Virus record (IMG/VR): IMGVR_UViG_3300035183_000244
Coordinates: 1-31,709 of that record
Strand: one strand, 5' to 3'
From: a virus
Length of the DNA: 31,709 bases
Shown here: piece after piece, positions 1-31,709 of the stretch
Layout of the letters: each line of letters begins with the position of its first letter
Numbering within the stretch: position 1 is the first letter of the stretch
The notes under the pieces: model-generated
Database searches by the model: none
Seen by the model: the letters and a program-made list of their open reading frames with translations, nothing else
What the model was told of the DNA's origin: nothing
Program-made: the position numbers and the translations under genes

Positions 1-140
1 GCAACATTATCAAATCTTGGTGGAAGTCCTCCACAGGCTAAATACGCAGTTGTTTATAAAGAAAGGGTTTATGTGGCTGGATTTTCTCCTAACTTTTCAA
101 CAGTTTGGTTTTCTGATATAGGCAATCCAGAATCTTGGAA
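1..140. repeat. Left copy of 140-bp terminal direct repeat (genome join)
   Basis: Bases 1-140 match 31570-31709 with one difference: C at 127, T at 31696. The reading frame of the tail gene is continuous through the overlap. This fits the ends of a circular or circularly permuted molecule whose unit length is 31,569 bp. The mismatch argues against a pure copying artefact and suggests mixed phage genotypes or a real terminal repeat that has drifted. Confidence 0.93.
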
Positions 141-3352: not shown

Positions 3353-6196
3353 ATGGACGAATTCCAACAAAAATTAAATCAATTGGTAGTTCCTCAAGAA
3401 CAACAACAGAAACCGAAAGGAGTTGGTGCTTTGGCAAAAGATATCGGAAAAGTGGGCTTTGAATTTGGCAAGGAATTATTAAGAGCAACCCCTGAACTTG
3501 CTTTAAAAGCAGGAAAAGAAATTGTTTCTGCCCCTTTTCATCCAATACGAACGATTGAAGGAGTAGCACAATTCGGAGGAGAGATGGCGAGGGGGTTGGC
3601 AAGGGATATAGTGGCGACAACCGCCCCCTTGTATGAACTAATAACCGAGGGAGAAATAAGAGGAGAAACAATAAAACCAGCGGGAACATTGGCAGAACCA
3701 ATCTTGGGGAAAGAACCAATCAAACCAATTCAGGAACAGATAAAAGGAACAAGGGAGAGCACAAGGCAAAAAATAAGAGAATTTTTAACGCCCTATTTAG
3801 GAGAAGAAAGAGCAAGACAAATCGCTGAAGCGGCAGGAGTGGGAGCGGGATTGGCATCAGGAGCATTGGTGGCGAGTTCTATCATTCCTCTTGCTCCAAT
3901 AAAAGATATCTCCAAACAGATAGCGAAAGAAGGTTCAGAGGAGATTGTTAGCAATATTTTAAGGAGTTCGTTTAAAAACCTTTCGGAAGAGGAGATTTTA
4001 AGACTGAGCAAGATGTTTGCTCCAGTAAGGGACGCAAGAATAATTGAGGATGAACTGAAAAATGTTGTGGGAGAATTGGGAAAAAGACAATTCACGGAAA
4101 GGATTACCAAACAAGAGGTAAAAGGAATTCCAAGGGTAGTAAAACAGCAAATTAAACAAGATGCCGACTTACTTTTCAGGGATGTTCATCACGACCCGCA
4201 ATTGATTAGTCAAGCTCAGGAATTCATAAGAACCAGGGGTATTGGAGAAGCCTTAAATACGTTCAACAAACAGCCACTTAATGATTTTACGCAAACATTA
4301 GGAAGACAACTCATTCCGCTTCTGGAAAAAGAAAAAAGATACGACGACATTTACGAAATCATCAAAAAGGTTGCGGGAGAATCAACAGAAATAGCCAGAA
4401 ACTTTAGGCAACTACAATTTTGGGGGACGCTCTCTCCGGAAGGACTGGTGGAGATGGCCCATAAGACATTGCAGGAATTCACTGAAAAACTAACTCAAAA
4501 TCCAGCCAATAGACTTTTGGCAAGGCTACAAAGGAAATCGGTTGATGCTTTAAAACTAACCGGCGAAGAAATCAAAAAACTTATGGATATCGGGAAAAGG
4601 ATGCAAAAAGCGGAAAGCGAATTGGAAAGAATAAAGCTGGCAAGAGAAGCAAGAGAATTGATAGCAGACAAAGTTCCCTGGACAATGAGGGACTTGCTTT
4701 TGGACATTTGGAATTTGCCAAGAACATTCACCGCCGGCTTTTTTGATTTATCCGCAACATTGATGCATAACGCAATGTTCGCAGCAAGACACCCCATTTT
4801 GACATTGAGAAATTTTTGGGAAGCAGGAGTAAAGCCGTTCTTTTCAGAACAGGCATATGAGAATGTAATGAAAGACATTTTGACTAACCCGCTTTTGGAC
4901 AAAATGGAAAAAGCAAAATTGGCTATTACAGATTTGAACGCAGACAGGATTTTAAGGGAAGAGCAGTTCAGGTCGGTTTTGGCGGAAAGAATTCCTGTTT
5001 TGAAGCATCCAATAAGAATGTCAGAAAGAGCGTGGACAGCGTTCCTGAATAAGATGAGGGCTGATAGTTTTGAAATGATGTATAGGAACTTTGAAAGGGC
5101 AGGAGCAAAAATTGACGATAGAGTTTTGCATTGGATGGGAAGGTTTATAAACGCTGCTACTGGTAGAGGAGATTTGGGAAGGATGGCAGTGGCAAGTAAT
5201 TATTTGGCACAAATTTTGTTTTCCCCGAGAAAAATGTTGGCGGCGGCAGAAATGATGTCATTTCCTTGGTGGCCAGGAATACCATCCCCCGTAAGAAAAG
5301 AAATAATTAAGACCTGGATTTCATTTTTAGGAGCAGGATCTACTATTCTTGGATTGGCAAAATTAGCAGGAGCTGAAGTTGGCACTGATCCGGATAGTGC
5401 TGACTTTGGAAAAATCAAGGTTGGCAATACGAGAATAAATGTTTTTGGACCATATCAGCAATACGCGGTTCTGTTTCACAGGATTTTCAATGGTAGATAT
5501 GTCAGTTCGGTTACCGGAAGGGAATTTGACTTAGGAGTTGGATATAAGCCTATGACAGGTGCGGAATTGATTGGCAGATGGTTTGACTCAAAAACGCATC
5601 CGACATTGTCATTTATTGAGAGCTGGCTGAGGGGAAGAAGATTCACCGGGGAGAAATTTGAATTGGGACCGGCGATGATTGATACAATGATGCCGATGAT
5701 TCTCCAGGATCTGAACGACTTGATAGCGGAGCACGGAACGGATCCCAAAACTCCGCTTTTCGCTTTCTTGTCTTTTCTCGGTCTGCCGGTTCAGACATAC
5801 GGAAACTTCACGCTTTACACCCCATATTTGAAACTTCTGCCGTCAGGAGAAAGGAAAATTGAGATTGAACCACCGCCATCCATAGGACAAAGAGTTTGGG
5901 AGTTTCTTTTTGGTAAACAGCTTGAGCCGGGAATGATGCCAGTTCCCGATGATATGAGAAAACAAGCAATTCTGAAATGGTATATTGATGGAGAGAAGAA
6001 TTATGTAGCGCAAAGGAAAGGAGAGTTAAGACAAAGGATTTTAAGAGGGGAAATGACACAAGAACAGGCATTGGCAGAAATGGAAAGAATACTTAATGAT
6101 GCGGAGCAAAGGGTAAGAAAAACTATGGGCGAGTTGGGATTAAGCGAGGAGTCGCTTCTTAACATTTATCCGGAAGAGGTAATAGCAACACAATAA
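3353..6196 (+). CDS. Large internal virion-like protein (about 947 aa)
   Basis: An in-frame TTG at 3299 would extend the frame, but it lies inside the upstream gene. The ATG at 3353, one base after the preceding stop, fits the pattern of its neighbours. The N-terminal part is amphipathic helix with a Gly/Ala-rich hydrophobic stretch (AAGVGAGLASGALVASSIIP, about residue 170). The middle is helical. A conserved-looking segment around TDPDSADFGKIKVGNTRI, followed by YQQYAVLFHRIF, resembles a region I have seen in large virion-associated proteins of tailed phages. The size and the place before lysis genes fit an ejection or internal core protein. No transglycosylase or protease active site is evident. 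It ends in TAATG, coupled to the next gene. Confidence 0.7.
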   Translation: MDEFQQKLNQLVVPQEQQQKPKGVGALAKDIGKVGFEFGKELLRATPELALKAGKEIVSAPFHPIRTIEGVAQFGGEMARGLARDIVATTAPLYELITEGEIRGETIKPAGTLAEPILGKEPIKPIQEQIKGTRESTRQKIREFLTPYLGEERARQIAEAAGVGAGLASGALVASSIIPLAPIKDISKQIAKEGSEEIVSNILRSSFKNLSEEEILRLSKMFAPVRDARIIEDELKNVVGELGKRQFTERITKQEVKGIPRVVKQQIKQDADLLFRDVHHDPQLISQAQEFIRTRGIGEALNTFNKQPLNDFTQTLGRQLIPLLEKEKRYDDIYEIIKKVAGESTEIARNFRQLQFWGTLSPEGLVEMAHKTLQEFTEKLTQNPANRLLARLQRKSVDALKLTGEEIKKLMDIGKRMQKAESELERIKLAREARELIADKVPWTMRDLLLDIWNLPRTFTAGFFDLSATLMHNAMFAARHPILTLRNFWEAGVKPFFSEQAYENVMKDILTNPLLDKMEKAKLAITDLNADRILREEQFRSVLAERIPVLKHPIRMSERAWTAFLNKMRADSFEMMYRNFERAGAKIDDRVLHWMGRFINAATGRGDLGRMAVASNYLAQILFSPRKMLAAAEMMSFPWWPGIPSPVRKEIIKTWISFLGAGSTILGLAKLAGAEVGTDPDSADFGKIKVGNTRINVFGPYQQYAVLFHRIFNGRYVSSVTGREFDLGVGYKPMTGAELIGRWFDSKTHPTLSFIESWLRGRRFTGEKFELGPAMIDTMMPMILQDLNDLIAEHGTDPKTPLFAFLSFLGLPVQTYGNFTLYTPYLKLLPSGERKIEIEPPPSIGQRVWEFLFGKQLEPGMMPVPDDMRKQAILKWYIDGEKNYVAQRKGELRQRILRGEMTQEQALAEMERILNDAEQRVRKTMGELGLSEESLLNIYPEEVIATQ

Positions 6197-8577
6197 TGCC
6201 AAACCAACCATTCCAAAATCAACAATCAGAAAAGAGGTTATTCAATAAAATGATTGATTTATCAAATAAAACCTGTTTGGTTTATGATTTTGGGTTGTTT
6301 ACGGAACAAGCAGCAAGACTTGCAAGGGATTTTGGGAGTGTTTATTATTTCTGTTTTGATGAAAAAACTGAGATTTTGACAGATAGGGGATGGAAATTTT
6401 TTAAAGACTTGGATGGTTCAGAAAAGGTAGCAACTTTAAATCCAAATACTTTTGAGATAGAATATCATAAACCTTATGCTTATCAAAAATTTTATTATGT
6501 TGGAGAGATGATACATTTTTATTCACCCCAGAAAGCAATAGATTTGCTTGTAACACCAGAACATCGTATATGGGGATTTACATCAACAAATTTGAAAAAG
6601 AAAAAACTTCAATCTTATAGAGCGGATAGTATTCCTAAAAGTCATTTTTGGATACCAAGAACTGGTAAATGGAGAGGTAAGGAGGAAGAATTTTTTATTT
6701 TACCAGAATATATTAGCCAATGGAAGGGTATAAATAGGCAAAAATACTATCCACCAATAAAAATTAATATGGATTATTGGTTAAAATTTCTTGGATGGTA
6801 TTTAGCAGAAGGCAATGTGAGTTATAATAAAGTTGGAAATTTAAGTAGAGCTAAAATCACACAAAAAAATAAACGAAAAGAGATTGAAAATCTTTTATCA
6901 AAACTTCCATTTAAATATTCAATTTACAAGAGGGAGGGAGGAATATGGAATTTTTTTATAAATAGTCCTCAATTAGCAAATTATTTGGCACAATTTGGAA
7001 TGCACAGTCATACTAAAAGGGTTCCTGATTTTATCAAATGGTTATCTCCAAGACAGATTGATATATTTCTTAACGCTTTTTGTAAGGGGGATGGATATGT
7101 CAAAAAGTCGAGTAAAAACAAAAAAGGAGGTAGCGGAGGACAAAGAGTTTTTTATTCATCAAGCAAACAACTCATAGATGATATTCAGGAATTGGTTTTT
7201 AAGATAGGTAAAAGCGGAGTTATTAAAAGTCGTTTCAGCGGTTTTTCTTCTAAAGAACAATATGTCTTATTTGAAAAAAAGAAATTTGATAAGTTTTATA
7301 TAAAACAAAGCGGGAAGTTTACAAATCATTTACACAGGGAATTTTATGAAGGATTTGTATATGACGTAACAGTTAAAAATCATATTATCTATGTTCGCAG
7401 GAATGGGATACCCATTTGGTCAGGTAATTGTCCCTGGCAGGACGCCTTTCCAAAGGTTGAAAAGTCTTTAATTGGAAAAGATTTTGATGGCTTGATAAGA
7501 ATTTCTTCCTTTTGGGAATATGTAGATAAGGCAGATATTATTTTTATTCCCGATACTCATACAGGTGATTTGGTAGAGTTCTTGAAGACTAAAGGATACA
7601 AGGTTGCTGGACCAGGAAAAGCGGAGTTATTGGAATTGAATAGGATTTTGGGGAGAAAAGTCCAGAAAGAGTTGGAACTTCCAACACAGGAAACTTATGT
7701 TTTAAAAGGCTTAGAGAAGTTAAGGGAATTTTTGAAAAACACGAAAGAAGAATTGTTCATAAAACTTAATACTTTCAGGGGAACGATTGAGACATTCAGA
7801 CATATTGATTACGAAAGTTCTGAACCATTATTGGACCACATAGCCTATGAGAGCGGACCGGAGCAACACATCTTGGAGTTCGTAGCGGAAAAGGCTTTGG
7901 AGGGTATAGAACCAGGAGGAGACCACATATTTAATGGAGAAAAAATTTTCTATCCGACGATGTATGGTTTTGAACTGAAAAGGGCTGGTTATATAGGCAA
8001 AATAGTCAATGAAAATGAATATCCAGAACAACTAAAAAAAGTTGATGATGCTTTATCTATTGTTTTGGAGGAATTGAATTACAGGTTTTTCTATTCAACG
8101 GAGGTCATTATTACGAAAGACAGAAAGGGATATTTGATTGATCCTTGTATAAGATTAGCTGCTCCTGTTGTTTCCGCGCTCCAAACGGAACTTATAGAGA
8201 ACTATTCAGAGGTTGTTTATGGATTGGCAACGGGAGAAAAAATACAGCCAAAATACAAAGCAAAATATGGAGGAGGAGTTGTTTTTGAGAGTGAGTGGGC
8301 ACAGAATTATTGGCTTAAAGTATCTTTCCCGAAAGAATTAAGGCAGTGGATAAAATTGAGAATGGCGATGAAATTTAAAGATGCGTATTACGCTGTTCCA
8401 GGATTTACTTCCATTTGTTCAGTAGTGGCTATTGGTAATTCACCGGACGAGGTTTTTGAACAAGTAAAGGAAAGAGCGGAAAAAGTCAAGGCATATCTTC
8501 TTAACAAAAATCTGTCGGGCATTGAACCACTGAAAAAACTCATCGGCGAGGCGAAAGATTACGGAATCAATTTTTAA
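6196..8577 (+). CDS. PurD-like ATP-grasp enzyme interrupted by an intein
   Basis: The 793-residue product consists of a 52-residue N-extein, a 359-residue intein and a 382-residue C-extein. The joined exteins give 434 residues, close to the size of phosphoribosylamine-glycine ligase (PurD). The C-extein shows an ATP-grasp layout: GPGKAELLELNRILGRKVQ, then ELPTQETYVL, then LFIKLNTFRG, then LEFVAEKALEGIEPGGDHIFNGEK, and finally LIDPCIRLAAP, corresponding to the Asn/Asp...Arg metal site. The family forms carbon-nitrogen bonds through an acyl-phosphate. The substrate here is unknown, and a role in nucleotide synthesis or in modifying a virion or host protein are both possible. It sits, oddly, between virion and lysis genes. 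The ATG overlaps the previous stop (TAATG). Confidence 0.82.
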   Translation: MPNQPFQNQQSEKRLFNKMIDLSNKTCLVYDFGLFTEQAARLARDFGSVYYFCFDEKTEILTDRGWKFFKDLDGSEKVATLNPNTFEIEYHKPYAYQKFYYVGEMIHFYSPQKAIDLLVTPEHRIWGFTSTNLKKKKLQSYRADSIPKSHFWIPRTGKWRGKEEEFFILPEYISQWKGINRQKYYPPIKINMDYWLKFLGWYLAEGNVSYNKVGNLSRAKITQKNKRKEIENLLSKLPFKYSIYKREGGIWNFFINSPQLANYLAQFGMHSHTKRVPDFIKWLSPRQIDIFLNAFCKGDGYVKKSSKNKKGGSGGQRVFYSSSKQLIDDIQELVFKIGKSGVIKSRFSGFSSKEQYVLFEKKKFDKFYIKQSGKFTNHLHREFYEGFVYDVTVKNHIIYVRRNGIPIWSGNCPWQDAFPKVEKSLIGKDFDGLIRISSFWEYVDKADIIFIPDTHTGDLVEFLKTKGYKVAGPGKAELLELNRILGRKVQKELELPTQETYVLKGLEKLREFLKNTKEELFIKLNTFRGTIETFRHIDYESSEPLLDHIAYESGPEQHILEFVAEKALEGIEPGGDHIFNGEKIFYPTMYGFELKRAGYIGKIVNENEYPEQLKKVDDALSIVLEELNYRFFYSTEVIITKDRKGYLIDPCIRLAAPVVSALQTELIENYSEVVYGLATGEKIQPKYKAKYGGGVVFESEWAQNYWLKVSFPKELRQWIKLRMAMKFKDAYYAVPGFTSICSVVAIGNSPDEVFEQVKERAEKVKAYLLNKNLSGIEPLKKLIGEAKDYGINF
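6352..7428 (+). other. Intein with LAGLIDADG homing endonuclease (residues 53-411)
   Basis: Splicing block A begins at Cys53 (CFDEKTEILTDRGWKFFKDL). Block B carries TPEH with His123. Two LAGLIDADG-type helices are present: LGWYLAEGN at 199-207 and FLNAFCKGDGY at about 291-301. Block F (VYDVTVKNH, His396) and block G (IPIWSGN, terminal Asn411) precede the +1 residue Cys412. All nucleophiles needed for splicing are therefore present. The penultimate residue is Gly410 rather than the usual His, a known but less common variant. Splicing would join SVYYF to CPWQDAFP. The acidic residues of both LAGLIDADG motifs (Glu and Asp) are retained, so endonuclease activity is plausible. Confidence 0.93.
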
Positions 8578-10743: not shown

Positions 10744-11391
10744 TCAACTTGCCTCAAGGTTGATGATGGAAGAAACGAGAGTCCAGCTCTGTGAGTAGAA
10801 TTCAGAATGGATAGCCCAGACATACCATTCATCTCCCTTATTTGTGAAAATTCCACCTCCGCTCACGCCAGGACAAGCAAAGTTCTTTGTGTAGAGTTTA
10901 TTTTCTGACATACCGATAAATCTTGGTTTCCAGACCTTTCCCAAAAGCCCGAGAGGACATCCAAAAGCCCAAAGATTGTCAGTAACGAAAATCGTATCTT
11001 TGGACAGCCAGCCTATCTTGACTGGCTTGAAATAGGGGGAAAGAACTGGATGGGAGACAACAATGATGTCATTGGGCTTGTCCTCAAGAAGAACATCTCC
11101 CAAGTCAATCGTGACCCAGTTGTTGTTTTCAAGAAGGAAGGAAGCCCACTTATCAACTATCTCCGTGTTATGGACGAACAGGTGATGGGCGGTGAGAATT
11201 CCCATATTCGTGAGAGTTCCTGATCCACACCAGAAATTGTTCTTGCTTTCTACTACCACGAGGCAACAGAACTTGCGGAAAGGAAACGGAAGACTATCTG
11301 GCATAAGAATGGGGACACCGTGCGATTGGGCTTTCTTTTTCTTGACTTGGTAGATGGGACGGATAAGAGGAATTTTCTTGGTTTTCCTCAT
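10744..11391 (-). CDS. Trypsin-like (S1 fold) serine protease
   Basis: The 215-residue protein carries a complete chymotrypsin-type triad. GSGTLTNMGILTAHHLF supplies His70, NDIIVVSH supplies Asp108, and CPGVSGGG supplies Ser177. AFGCPLG before the serine loop is also typical. There is no signal peptide or membrane segment, so action in the host cytoplasm is likely. The N-terminus is basic. A full Shine-Dalgarno (AAAAGGAGGTGA, 11410-11399) precedes the ATG, unlike most genes here. It follows the Cas4-like gene after 18 bp and is closed by its own terminator. Sampled 60-base lines of the cassette are about 45-50% G+C, against 18-28% in the adjacent - strand genes, suggesting separate acquisition. 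The substrate is unknown; host or rival-phage protein cleavage and virion maturation are all possible. Confidence 0.85.
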   Translation of the reverse strand: MRKTKKIPLIRPIYQVKKKKAQSHGVPILMPDSLPFPFRKFCCLVVVESKNNFWCGSGTLTNMGILTAHHLFVHNTEIVDKWASFLLENNNWVTIDLGDVLLEDKPNDIIVVSHPVLSPYFKPVKIGWLSKDTIFVTDNLWAFGCPLGLLGKVWKPRFIGMSENKLYTKNFACPGVSGGGIFTNKGDEWYVWAIHSEFYSQSWTLVSSIINLEAS

Positions 11392-15256: not shown

Positions 15257-15402
15257 TTTTAAAGATTGAATTTAATGACGACATCTTAATTTTAACATTG
15301 ATTACTAAATTATTTTAAATTCCTATTGTGATAGGTATTAAATAACATTTTAGTTGCTATTGTGGTAGAAACTGAATTTTTAACTCTAACATTGATTTTT
15401 GT
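15257..15402. other. AT-rich spacer with paired short repeats beside the array
   Basis: No gene is visible. TAACATTG occurs at 15293-15300 and 15387-15394. CTATTGTG occurs at 15323-15330 and 15357-15364, each followed by a G/ATAG that could form a small CTAT/ATAG hairpin. The block also carries the element for ATG 15256 (15283 downward). It may be a leader or trailer of the repeat array. Confidence 0.45.
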
Positions 15403-15842
15403 TTTCCGCTCTTTACTTATGGTTTTCCTAAAATTAATGGCTCGCTTATTAACTGAGGTTTTCTGCTAACGATTGGCTCGCTCCCGATTTTAGGATTTTT
15501 GAAGAGGGTTGGCTCGCTACAATAGCTTGGTTTGCTTTCTTAATCAGGCTCGCTACAGGAAAATGGTTTTCTTTAAAGAAGTGGCTCACTATACAGGATA
15601 GGTTTTCTTTTATTTAATGGATCGCTGTACAACAGCGGGTTGTTTGCTCGAAATGGCTCACTCATCATATACGGGTTTCTGGGGTTTAATGGTTCGCTGG
15701 AGGAGCAAGGTTTTCTCAGTATGTGTGGCTCGCTTTTAATAAATGGATTACTAAAAGAAATTGGCTCGCTCACCGACTGAGGTTTCCTTAAGGAGGATGG
15801 CTCGCTAAACACTATTGATGTTCTTTTTGATTAAGGCTCAAA
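15403..15842 (-). repeat. TIGR-like tandem interspaced guide array, 36-nt period
   Basis: On the + strand each unit is (T)GGCTCGCT, a variable 10-mer, GGTTTTCT, and a variable 10-mer. Eleven full units run without a single length change from 15439 to 15834. GGCTCGCT-like blocks start at 15439, 15475, 15511, 15547, 15583, 15619, 15655, 15691, 15727, 15763, 15799 and 15835 (the last degenerate). GGTTTTCT-like blocks start 18 bases after each. One more GGTTTTCC at 15421 and a decayed block at 15403 extend the array. On the strand of the adjacent tas-like gene the blocks read AGCGAGCC and AGAAAACC, sharing AGNNANCC. The variable blocks all differ. A 36-nt unit with two repeats and two spacers is the hallmark of TIGR arrays, which are processed to 36-nt tigRNAs. 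Strand of transcription is assumed from the gene, not shown. Confidence 0.88.
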
Positions 15843-15845
15843 TTT

Positions 15846-16523
15846 TTACTCTACGACTACATCCTCCATTTGATGCTTCAAAACATCAACAACATAAGGC
15901 TTTGATACTGACAATCCCTCTAATTCTCTCCATTTCACATATAAATCAACAAAAAATCTTTTCACCATATATCTTCTTGCTCTCATATCAATATGTCCTT
16001 TAGTCAGTTCTGGATGTTTCTCTTGCTCGTATTTCTTTCTTTCATCATAAAGTTTTCTATATGGGGATTTTGACTTAATAAAGCAATCAGCAACCTTCCA
16101 AGCAATTGTTTTTGCTAATGGATTGTAATTTACTTTTTCTCCTTTTTTTCTTTTTTGATTAGGAGATAATCCAAAATAACTCCAAATGTTGGAAGGGTGT
16201 TTTGCTTTCTTGATGTCAATTAAAGATATTAAAGCACAACCTAAAACTTCTCCAATTCCTTTAACTTTTTTTAACCATTCTTCCCATATAGGAACACCAT
16301 TTAGGCTATTTTTCAGATATTTCTTCATTTCCTTCTCAATATCAAAAATCCTTTTGTAAAAGTTATTGATTGGAGCATCAGGATTTTTCTGTTGATTGAG
16401 AGCAAAAACTTGGTTTCCCATAGCAACCCTGTGTTTTTGTATTCTGTAATAGTGTCCTATAAGATATTTGATTTCTCTTTTTCTAACTTCTGTCCATTCA
16501 ACTTTTTCATTTTTCTTTTTCAT
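15846..16523 (-). CDS. tasA: Tas-like protein: Nop/IS110 C-terminal-domain RNA-binding protein without nuclease (TasA-like)
   Basis: The 225-residue protein has a helical N-terminal part (about 1-80). A domain follows like the Transposase_20 region of IS110/IS116/IS902 enzymes: VKGIGEVLGCALISLIDI (about 87-104), HPSNIWSYFGLSP (109-121), LAKTIAWKVADCFIKS (136-151), and GHIDMRARRYMVKRFFVDLYVKWRELEGL (176-204). No RuvC-like DEDD domain and no HNH motif is present, so this is not a transposase. Its stop codon lies 3 nt from the 36-nt-period array. TIGR-associated (Tas) proteins have exactly such a Nop-like domain related to box C/D RNP proteins and IS110, alone or fused to RuvC or HNH. By family knowledge it would bind guide RNAs from the array and be directed to DNA. 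An element AGTCGATTATTAA starts about 30 nt upstream. Confidence 0.85.
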   Translation of the reverse strand: MKKKNEKVEWTEVRKREIKYLIGHYYRIQKHRVAMGNQVFALNQQKNPDAPINNFYKRIFDIEKEMKKYLKNSLNGVPIWEEWLKKVKGIGEVLGCALISLIDIKKAKHPSNIWSYFGLSPNQKRKKGEKVNYNPLAKTIAWKVADCFIKSKSPYRKLYDERKKYEQEKHPELTKGHIDMRARRYMVKRFFVDLYVKWRELEGLSVSKPYVVDVLKHQMEDVVVE

Positions 16524-16769: not shown

Positions 16770-16946
16770 CTATTCAATTTCATAGTATTGATTTAATAAT
16801 GACTGTAACTGGTTGAAATCGTAAAGCCTTCTTTTTAATCCTTTCTTTTTTGATTTAATGTTCCACTTCTTTATCAGATAGTAAACTGTAGACTTTGGAA
16901 GATCAATGATTTCGGATATTTCTCTGACTGTTTTGTAATCCTCCAT
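16770..16946 (-). CDS. 58-aa helix-turn-helix DNA-binding protein (excisionase/MerR-like)
   Basis: ATG 16946 to TAG 16770-16772. TVREISEIIDLPKSTVYYLI (residues 6-25) is a clear helix-turn-helix. It is followed by a basic KSKKKGLKRRLYDFNQLQSLL wing, typical of small excisionase-type or winged-helix regulators. GGTCGTTTGTTAAA lies 28 nt upstream. It lies between the recombination genes and the tas-like gene, so it may control that unit. No integrase is seen, so excision is unlikely and transcriptional control is the better guess. Confidence 0.75.
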   Translation of the reverse strand: MEDYKTVREISEIIDLPKSTVYYLIKKWNIKSKKKGLKRRLYDFNQLQSLLNQYYEIE

Positions 16947-16996: not shown

Positions 16997-17605
16997 TCAG
17001 GATATATTTCCACTTCTTTTTTCATCATCGTATAATTCTTGGATTCTTTTCCACGCCTTTTTTATTCTTACTCCAATATCTAACAAATCCTCCATAGTCC
17101 TTTTGGTTTCAAAAGTCTTAATATCTGAAGTTAAAACAAACTCTCCTATTTCCAATTTGGATGGTATCCAATAAAGAAAAATCTTATTAGGAAGCCTTCC
17201 GTAATTAAGATAAACAAGCATAGCATAGAAGGTTAATTGCCCGAATTTATCTACATAGTTCTGTGTCCATTCAAAAGTCCCCGTCTTAATCTCGTGGATA
17301 ACCAAATCTTTTTCATCAAATCCATCTAAAACTCCCAAAATTGGCACATCGTCCACCATTCCTTTCAAAGTAAATTCTTTTTTCTCAAACTTTGGCATTA
17401 GAAGTTTTGCTATTTCAAAATCTAACGGCAACTCTTCCTGTTCTAATTCAACTGCTTCAGCAAAAGCCTTTCCCAACTTCAACAAAGGATGCATTTTTAT
17501 TCCTTCTCCGTATACATACCTCACAACATATTCATATTCAGATTTTTCTAATAATGCCAACTGACTCCAGCTCAAATAAGGTTTAGGCGTTTTCTTCTGT
17601 TCCAT
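16997..17605 (-). CDS. RecB-like PD-(D/E)XK nuclease
   Basis: The 202-residue protein has the RecB-family order: LSWSQLALLEKSEYEY near the N-terminus, GKAFAEAVE, GVLDGFDEKDLVIHEIKTG (Asp94, Glu105, Lys107), then FGQLTFYAMLVY (Gln123). No Fe-S cysteine set is visible, which separates it from the Cas4-like gene at 11410. Its start lies within the end of the annealing-protein gene (23-nt overlap). The pair therefore looks like an exonuclease plus single-strand annealing protein recombination module, as with Red or RecE/T. Confidence 0.82.
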   Translation of the reverse strand: MEQKKTPKPYLSWSQLALLEKSEYEYVVRYVYGEGIKMHPLLKLGKAFAEAVELEQEELPLDFEIAKLLMPKFEKKEFTLKGMVDDVPILGVLDGFDEKDLVIHEIKTGTFEWTQNYVDKFGQLTFYAMLVYLNYGRLPNKIFLYWIPSKLEIGEFVLTSDIKTFETKRTMEDLLDIGVRIKKAWKRIQELYDDEKRSGNIS

Positions 17606-31168: not shown

Positions 31169-31709
31169 TGCCATCAATAGAGATAAATTCATTTCACGGA
31201 GGAATGAACTTATCAGTAAATCCTTTGCTTCTGAAGCCATATGAAGCAAGTTTAGCGAAAAATGTTGAGTTGAGCGAAATCGGGACACTAAAGAAGGCAA
31301 AAGGATACATTGTTTTCAAATCATTGGGGACAACTCCTTTATTGGATGTAAAAACACTTTATTCCTTTTATAAGATTGAATCATCTGGAACAACGAGGTT
31401 TTTATTGGCGGAGTGGAATGGCGGGCTTTATAAATACGATTTTGGAACTAATTCGTGGGTATCAATAGTGACAACGGGATTAACAACAAACCAGTCTTCG
31501 CAGTGGATAACATACAAGAATTTGGCGATAAGGTTTAATGGTTCTGATGTTCCAAAGAAATTTGATGGGGCAACATTATCAAATCTTGGTGGAAGTCCTC
31601 CACAGGCTAAATACGCAGTTGTTTATAAAGAAAGGGTTTATGTGGCTGGATTTTCTCCTAACTTTTCAACAGTTTGGTTTTCTGATATAGGCAATTCAGA
31701 ATCTTGGAA
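31168..31709 (+). CDS. Tail/connector beta-propeller-like protein, N-terminal part (continues at base 1)
   Basis: ATG 31168 is coupled to the adaptor stop. The frame is open to the window end and continues in the same phase at base 1, since 31570 corresponds to base 1. Joined, it gives about 475 residues. The start MPSIEINSFHGGMNLSVNPL resembles podovirus tail proteins that attach to the connector. The T at 31696 changes the Pro of NPESW (codon 127-129 in the left copy) to Ser. Confidence 0.75.
   Translation, partial: MPSIEINSFHGGMNLSVNPLLLKPYEASLAKNVELSEIGTLKKAKGYIVFKSLGTTPLLDVKTLYSFYKIESSGTTRFLLAEWNGGLYKYDFGTNSWVSIVTTGLTTNQSSQWITYKNLAIRFNGSDVPKKFDGATLSNLGGSPPQAKYAVVYKERVYVAGFSPNFSTVWFSDIGNSESW
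31570..31709. repeat. Right copy of 140-bp terminal direct repeat
   Basis: Same sequence as 1-140 except T at 31696. The repeat ends at the window edge. Confidence 0.93.

What the first reader, a model, noticed from the sequence alone, without database searches (positions are those of the whole stretch)
15403..16523. TIGR-Tas-like locus in a phage: 36-nt-period dual-spacer array beside a Nop/IS110-like protein
Seen: eleven successive 36-base units with no length change, each with two constant 8-9 nt blocks (GGCTCGCT and GGTTTTCT on the + strand) separating two variable blocks, 3 nt from a 225-aa gene. That protein resembles the C-terminal domain of IS110-family transposases. Known: TIGR-Tas systems of phages and parasitic bacteria (Faure et al., 2025, as I recall) pair such arrays, processed to 36-nt tigRNAs with two spacers, with Tas proteins carrying a Nop domain akin to box C/D RNPs and IS110. 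Inferred: this is a working RNA-guided DNA-binding system of the phage.
Basis: partly seen in the sequence, partly recalled or inferred. Interest (0 to 1): 0.96.

Follow-up and report, generated by a model that had tools for sequence, protein, structure and literature searches.

The report
Phage TIGR-TasA RNA-guide array locus
A 31.6-kb phage carries a complete TIGR-TasA locus, a small RNA-binding protein next to a 12-unit array of paired short guides; it belongs to a recently described family and resembles its known members, and what its guides aim at is still unknown.

Summary
On the minus strand, 15407-15839 holds 12 units (not 11) of exactly 36 nt: edge repeat AGCGAGCC, 10-nt spacer A, loop repeat AGAAAACC, 10-nt spacer B. 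[quoted passage not shown] That protein passes NCBI's curated TIGR-Tas model (190.8 bits, cutoff 100) and fails its IS110 model (26.6, cutoff 140). Its predicted fold matches TasR best in the PDB. It has no nuclease domain, so it is TasA. A DNA pattern made only from the repeats found at least 120 viral contigs, and 85 of 123 stretches examined also encode a Tas homologue. Across such arrays, position 6 of one edge repeat pairs with position 3 of the next in 50 of 51 informative units, supporting a 36-nt RNA cut mid-edge to mid-edge. A related phage carries an 89%-identical TasA (dN/dS 0.05) with almost wholly different spacers. No target was found in this phage, two related phages, or IMG/VR. 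It is a new member of a known kind; function is inferred and targets are unknown.

The parts
15846..16523 (-). tasA: 225-aa solo Nop-domain Tas protein, no nuclease domain
   Evidence: NCBIfam NF052498 190.8 bits vs cutoff 100; PDB sequence hits TasR/TasH; AlphaFold pLDDT 91.6, Foldseek best hit 9mty; dN/dS 0.05 vs L001
15407..15839 (-). TIGR dual-repeat array, 12 units of 36 nt
15835..15839 (-). 5'-truncated first edge repeat (GAGCC)
   Evidence: L001 has AGCC at the same place
15799..15834 (-). unit W1: spacer A TTAATCAAAA, loop AGAACATC (degenerate), spacer B AATAGTGTTT, next edge repeat AGCGAGCC
15439..15798 (-). units W2-W11, the last position being the edge repeat that opens W12
15411..15438 (-). 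unit W12: spacer A ATTAATTTTA, loop GGAAAACC, spacer B ATAAGTAAAG; the only unit with a counterpart in the L001 array
15407..15410 (-). 3'-truncated last edge repeat (AGCG)
   Evidence: L001 has AGCGA

Best explanation
This is a phage-borne TIGR-TasA locus. tasA and the array lie in tandem on the minus strand and are probably one transcript (inferred). The array RNA is cut within each edge repeat into 36-nt tigRNAs, each carrying spacer A, the loop repeat and spacer B. The unit boundaries are supported here by covariation; the cutting itself is inferred from published systems. A TasA dimer holds one tigRNA through the AG...CC box D/C motifs of the edge and loop repeats (inferred from the TasR and TasH structures). 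The complex binds about 18 bp of DNA, with spacer A pairing one strand and spacer B the other (inferred). With no nuclease domain it most likely binds, opens and bends the target without cutting it. The most likely role is blocking transcription or replication of other mobile elements competing for the same host, and the spacer set turns over quickly (role inferred).
For: Membership: curated TIGR-Tas model passed, IS110 model failed; TasR/TasH nearest by sequence and by fold; array anatomy. The repeat pattern alone recovers at least 120 viral contigs, and 85 of 123 stretches examined carry a Tas homologue, most on the array's strand. The experimentally characterised SpTIGR array of Salicola phage CGphi29 has the same edge octamer, AGCGAGCC. 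Unit boundaries and strand: 50 of 51 informative units keep the pair between edge i position 6 and edge i+1 position 3, with 9 G-U and no A-C, against 35 of 51 for the reverse relation; within-locus permutation 0 of 2000. Function retained: dN 0.05, dS 0.98. Turnover: L001 shares the repeats and TasA but only one of its four units. No target in its own genome or in the sampled flanks of 970 related units, which fits foreign targets.
Against: No target found anywhere: viral-contig scans for four window units gave chance-level or uninformative results. No predicted terminator follows the array, although Faure et al. call one typical. Unit W7 has a U-U mismatch at the end pair, and unit W1 has a degenerate loop, so not every unit need be active. 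No RNA or binding data are available.
Confidence: 0.9

Rival explanations
1. The protein is a fragment of an ordinary IS110-family transposase, and the repeats are unrelated.
For: Pfam Transposase_20 matches at its cutoff, and PHROGs names the family transposase.
Against: The NCBIfam IS110 model scores 26.6 bits against a cutoff of 140, while the TIGR-Tas model scores 190.8 against 100. There is no DEDD catalytic domain. IS110 proteins rank behind TasR and TasH by fold. The repeat and Tas gene co-occur in 85 of 123 stretches.
Confidence: 0.01
2. The 36-nt periodicity encodes a 12-residue protein repeat (SEPxxxRKPxxx).
For: A 79-aa open frame with that repeat runs through part of the array.
Against: That frame has stops in units W1, W8, W9 and W12, and 50 of 54 related arrays have no fully open sense frame. 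Spacers vary at all positions, and edge repeats show RNA pairing.
Confidence: 0.01
3. It is a true TIGR-TasA locus, but it acts on the phage's own or host genes (regulation, or help in integration) rather than on competitors.
For: Faure et al. list regulation and integrase assistance as possibilities for TasA (PMC12045711). A nuclease-free effector suits regulation.
Against: No match better than chance in its own genome, nor in own-flank tests across 970 units. Host genes were not tested because the host is unknown. Spacers turn over fast.
Confidence: 0.3

Closest known systems
TIGR-TasA with dual-repeat array (e.g. Flavonifractor plautii FpTIGR; Faure et al. 2025, PMC12045711)
   Same: Solo Nop-domain protein, adjacent array of alternating short repeats with dual spacers, 36-nt unit, truncated terminal edge repeats.
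   Different: Different repeat and spacer sequences; no predicted terminator after the array; 225 aa, at the short end of the homologues collected here.
TIGR-TasH of Salicola phage CGphi29 (SpTIGR)
   Same: Same edge octamer AGCGAGCC and a similar loop (AGACAACC), 36-nt unit, phage-borne.
   Different: TasH carries an N-terminal HNH nuclease; this protein does not.
TIGR-TasR (PDB 9mty)
   Same: Best solved relative by sequence and fold (33% identity, TM 0.74).
   Different: TasR has an N-terminal RuvC nuclease; its box motifs are UG/CCA rather than AG/CC(A).
IS110-family RNA-guided transposases (IS621, ISCro4)
   Same: Shared Nop-like RNA-binding fold at the C-terminus.
   Different: No DEDD domain, no bridge RNA; scores far below the IS110 family cutoff.

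Membership tests
TIGR-Tas | Nop-domain Tas protein encoded beside the array | tested here: met
   NF052498 190.8 bits vs cutoff 100; profile hits TasH 7.9e-53, TasR 7.4e-51; Foldseek 9mty E 5e-11
TIGR-Tas | Two alternating 8-12-nt repeats separated by spacers of about 9 nt (up to 12) | tested here: met
   8-nt edge and loop repeats, 10-nt spacers, 12 units of 36 nt
[quoted passage not shown]
   GAGCC at 15835-15839, AGCG at 15407-15410; likewise AGCC and AGCGA in L001
[quoted passage not shown]
   AG....CC in both repeats in the window and across 770 units
TIGR-Tas | Extra base pair between edge-repeat halves of the processed tigRNA, supported by covariation | tested here: met
   50 of 51 informative units paired across the unit vs 35 of 51 in the reverse relation; window 4 of 5
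TIGR-Tas | Rho-independent terminator after the array (typical, not universal) | tested here: inconclusive
   None on the minus strand; fold z-score -0.5
TIGR-Tas | Processing to 36-nt tigRNAs bound by Tas | not testable with these tools
   Needs small-RNA sequencing
TIGR-Tas | tigRNA-guided binding of both DNA strands | not testable with these tools
   Needs biochemistry; no natural target found
TasA subtype | No HNH or RuvC domain | tested here: met
   All-helical 225-aa model starting in the coiled coil, pLDDT 91.6
IS110 transposase | Meets the family model; DEDD catalytic domain | tested here: not met
   26.6 bits vs cutoff 140, only the C-terminal part matched

The most novel reading that the evidence does not exclude
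TIGR-TasA cassettes in phages sharing a host act as a fast-changing, nuclease-free interference system, in which homologous guides are kept but adjusted one spacer at a time as targets change. Supporting hints: one window unit has a diverged counterpart in L001 while TasA synonymous sites are near saturation, and in 6 of 8 related unit pairs with three differences all three lie in one spacer (chance about 0.2 each).
Probability: 0.12. Interest if true: 0.75.

Novelty: new member of a known kind. Interest (0 to 1): 0.4.

Why it matters
TIGR systems are recent and their natural targets and role are open. This locus adds a compact phage TasA with a relative that shares the protein but not the guides. 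The comparison also gives independent sequence evidence, not needing RNA data, for the phase and strand of tigRNA units in arrays of this repeat class. The co-occurrence of repeat pattern and Tas gene in at least 85 stretches gives an easy handle for finding many more such arrays.

Tried and rejected
Self-targets in the window, in L001's 42-kb phage record and in the sister phage L245: best matches equal re-paired and wrong-geometry controls. All-against-all targets among about 1.1 Mb of related loci: no enrichment. Own-flank targets for 970 units: same distribution as controls. Viral-contig scans for W6, W10 and W4 gave 1, 2 and 0 contigs; the W6 hit is a 51%-GC unrelated phage and the W10 hits show no similarity to this phage. 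W12 is too AT-rich to be informative. A unit conserved in five other arrays gave 21 contigs in five unrelated groups, judged chance. Host: one Patescibacteria genome of 380 has a terminase homologue at only 26% identity, so the host stays open. Plasmid records: no Tas match. PADLOC: no match.

Full report
OBSERVATION. The minus strand of 15407-15839 reads as 12 units of exactly 36 nt: AGCGAGCC, 10 nt, AGAAAACC, 10 nt. Identity at lag 36 is 0.54 against 0.27 +/- 0.02 in shuffles, and lag 18 is also raised (0.41) because the two repeats resemble each other. The first edge repeat is cut to GAGCC and the last to AGCG. Faure et al. describe this as the typical shape of TIGR arrays (PMC12045711). 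The stop codon of the 225-aa gene ends 6 nt before the array, on the same strand.

PROTEIN. NCBIfam's TIGR-Tas model matches at 3e-56, 190.8 bits against a cutoff of 100; the IS110 model reaches only 26.6 of 140. The best sequence matches with solved structures are TasR 9mty (5e-26) and TasH 21kl (1.5e-14). With a 52-member profile they rise to about 1e-51 to 1e-53, while IS621 stays at 8e-5. The AlphaFold model (pLDDT 91.6) matches 9mty best, then TasH, then IS110 recombinases. The model is all-helical with no nuclease domain, so the subtype is TasA.

PHAGE CONTEXT. The window is a phage: terminase, major head protein, replication protein. Its ends overlap by 140 nt at 99.3%, so it is probably a complete circle of about 31.57 kb. 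A related record, L001 (42 kb), has TasA at 89% identity and some early genes but no detectable copy of the terminase. A sister phage with a 74%-identical terminase, L245, shows no TasA or array in the 16.4 kb examined. The cassette therefore looks accessory and shared between phages with different structural modules.

FAMILY-WIDE TEST. A DNA pattern built only from the repeats hit at least 120 viral contigs (scan stopped at its limit). In the 123 sequences examined (including the window and earlier loci), 85 also encode a Tas homologue, most on the array's strand. In bacterial and archaeal genomes the same scan was noisier, with mostly single matches and 22 of 119 stretches with a Tas hit. 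The published SpTIGR array of Salicola phage CGphi29 uses the same edge octamer.

RNA EVIDENCE. In TasR the edge repeat adds a base pair between the two halves that end up at the two ends of one tigRNA (PMC12045711). I tested this on arrays of this repeat class, using units whose two flanking edge repeats differ. Position 6 of the upstream edge pairs with position 3 of the downstream edge in 50 of 51 units (34 G-C, 9 G-U, 7 A-U, 1 U-U). The reverse relation pairs in 35 of 51, and pairing within one edge in 43 and 35 of 51. Fifteen loci favour the tigRNA relation, ten are neutral, none favours the reverse. A within-locus permutation never reached the observed value in 2000 trials, whereas the reverse relation was average. 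Nine G-U and no A-C pairs also support the strand. The window contributes five informative units, four paired; its unit W7 is the single mismatch. The locus set was chosen with a pattern fixing Y at position 3 and R at position 6 in at least one unit, which still permits the A-C mismatch; related loci are not fully independent.

EVOLUTION. TasA of the window and L001 differ with dN 0.05 and dS about 0.95, so the protein is strongly conserved. Of 12 and 4 units only one pair is related (W12 and L2, 3 of 20 letters different; 0 of 20000 shuffles reach this). Spacers therefore turn over much faster than the protein, and the retained unit is more conserved than synonymous sites. Across other arrays, homologous units with three differences have them all in one spacer in 6 of 8 pairs, by my count; this is suggestive, not tested further.

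TARGETS. Using the published geometry (one strand reads spacer A then reverse-complement spacer B, deduced from the cleavage pattern in PMC12045711), nothing better than controls was found in the window, in L001's record, in L245, in 1.1 Mb of related loci, or in the flanks of 970 units. Exact scans of IMG/VR gave chance-level results. Absence of self-targets fits foreign targets but does not prove them.

VERDICT. This is a TIGR-TasA locus, an ordinary member of a recently published family, with intact anatomy and evidence of selection. Expression, RNA processing, DNA binding and biological role are inferred.

Noticed in passing
window 1-140 and 31570-31709: The two ends are 99.3% identical over 140 nt, so the record is probably a closed circle of about 31.57 kb.
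   Followed up: yes
window 15286-15397: Between the array and the next gene lies a stretch absent from L001, with an 18-nt direct repeat at its borders and two 30-nt CRISPR-repeat-like copies (73% identical) 34 nt apart; RNA fold is not stronger than shuffles.
   Followed up: partly
window 16770-16946: A 58-aa ORF that reads like a helix-turn-helix protein lies upstream of tasA on the same strand, after a PDDEXK-like exonuclease gene (16997-17605).
   Followed up: no
window 6196-8577: A 793-aa protein with a LAGLIDADG homing-endonuclease domain, probably an intein, inside an enzyme gene.
   Followed up: no
window 10744-11391: A trypsin-like serine protease gene (Pfam at cutoff), unusual in a phage; L001's record and L245 have relatives.
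   Followed up: partly
L374 3240-3600: Microcystis phage Mvi-JY20 carries a Tas homologue and a dual-repeat array ending in a clear terminator; a hypothetical CDS is annotated inside the array.
   Followed up: partly
L373 2122-2452: Mycobacterium phages (75 records match) carry a Tas homologue, often annotated transposase; upstream of it in KyMonks1A is a non-coding stretch with inverted repeats that by eye resembles a stem-loop TIGR array.
   Followed up: partly
L045, L104, L090, L079, L016, L054: A group of viral contigs shares homologous tigRNA units at various positions, useful for studying array turnover.
   Followed up: partly
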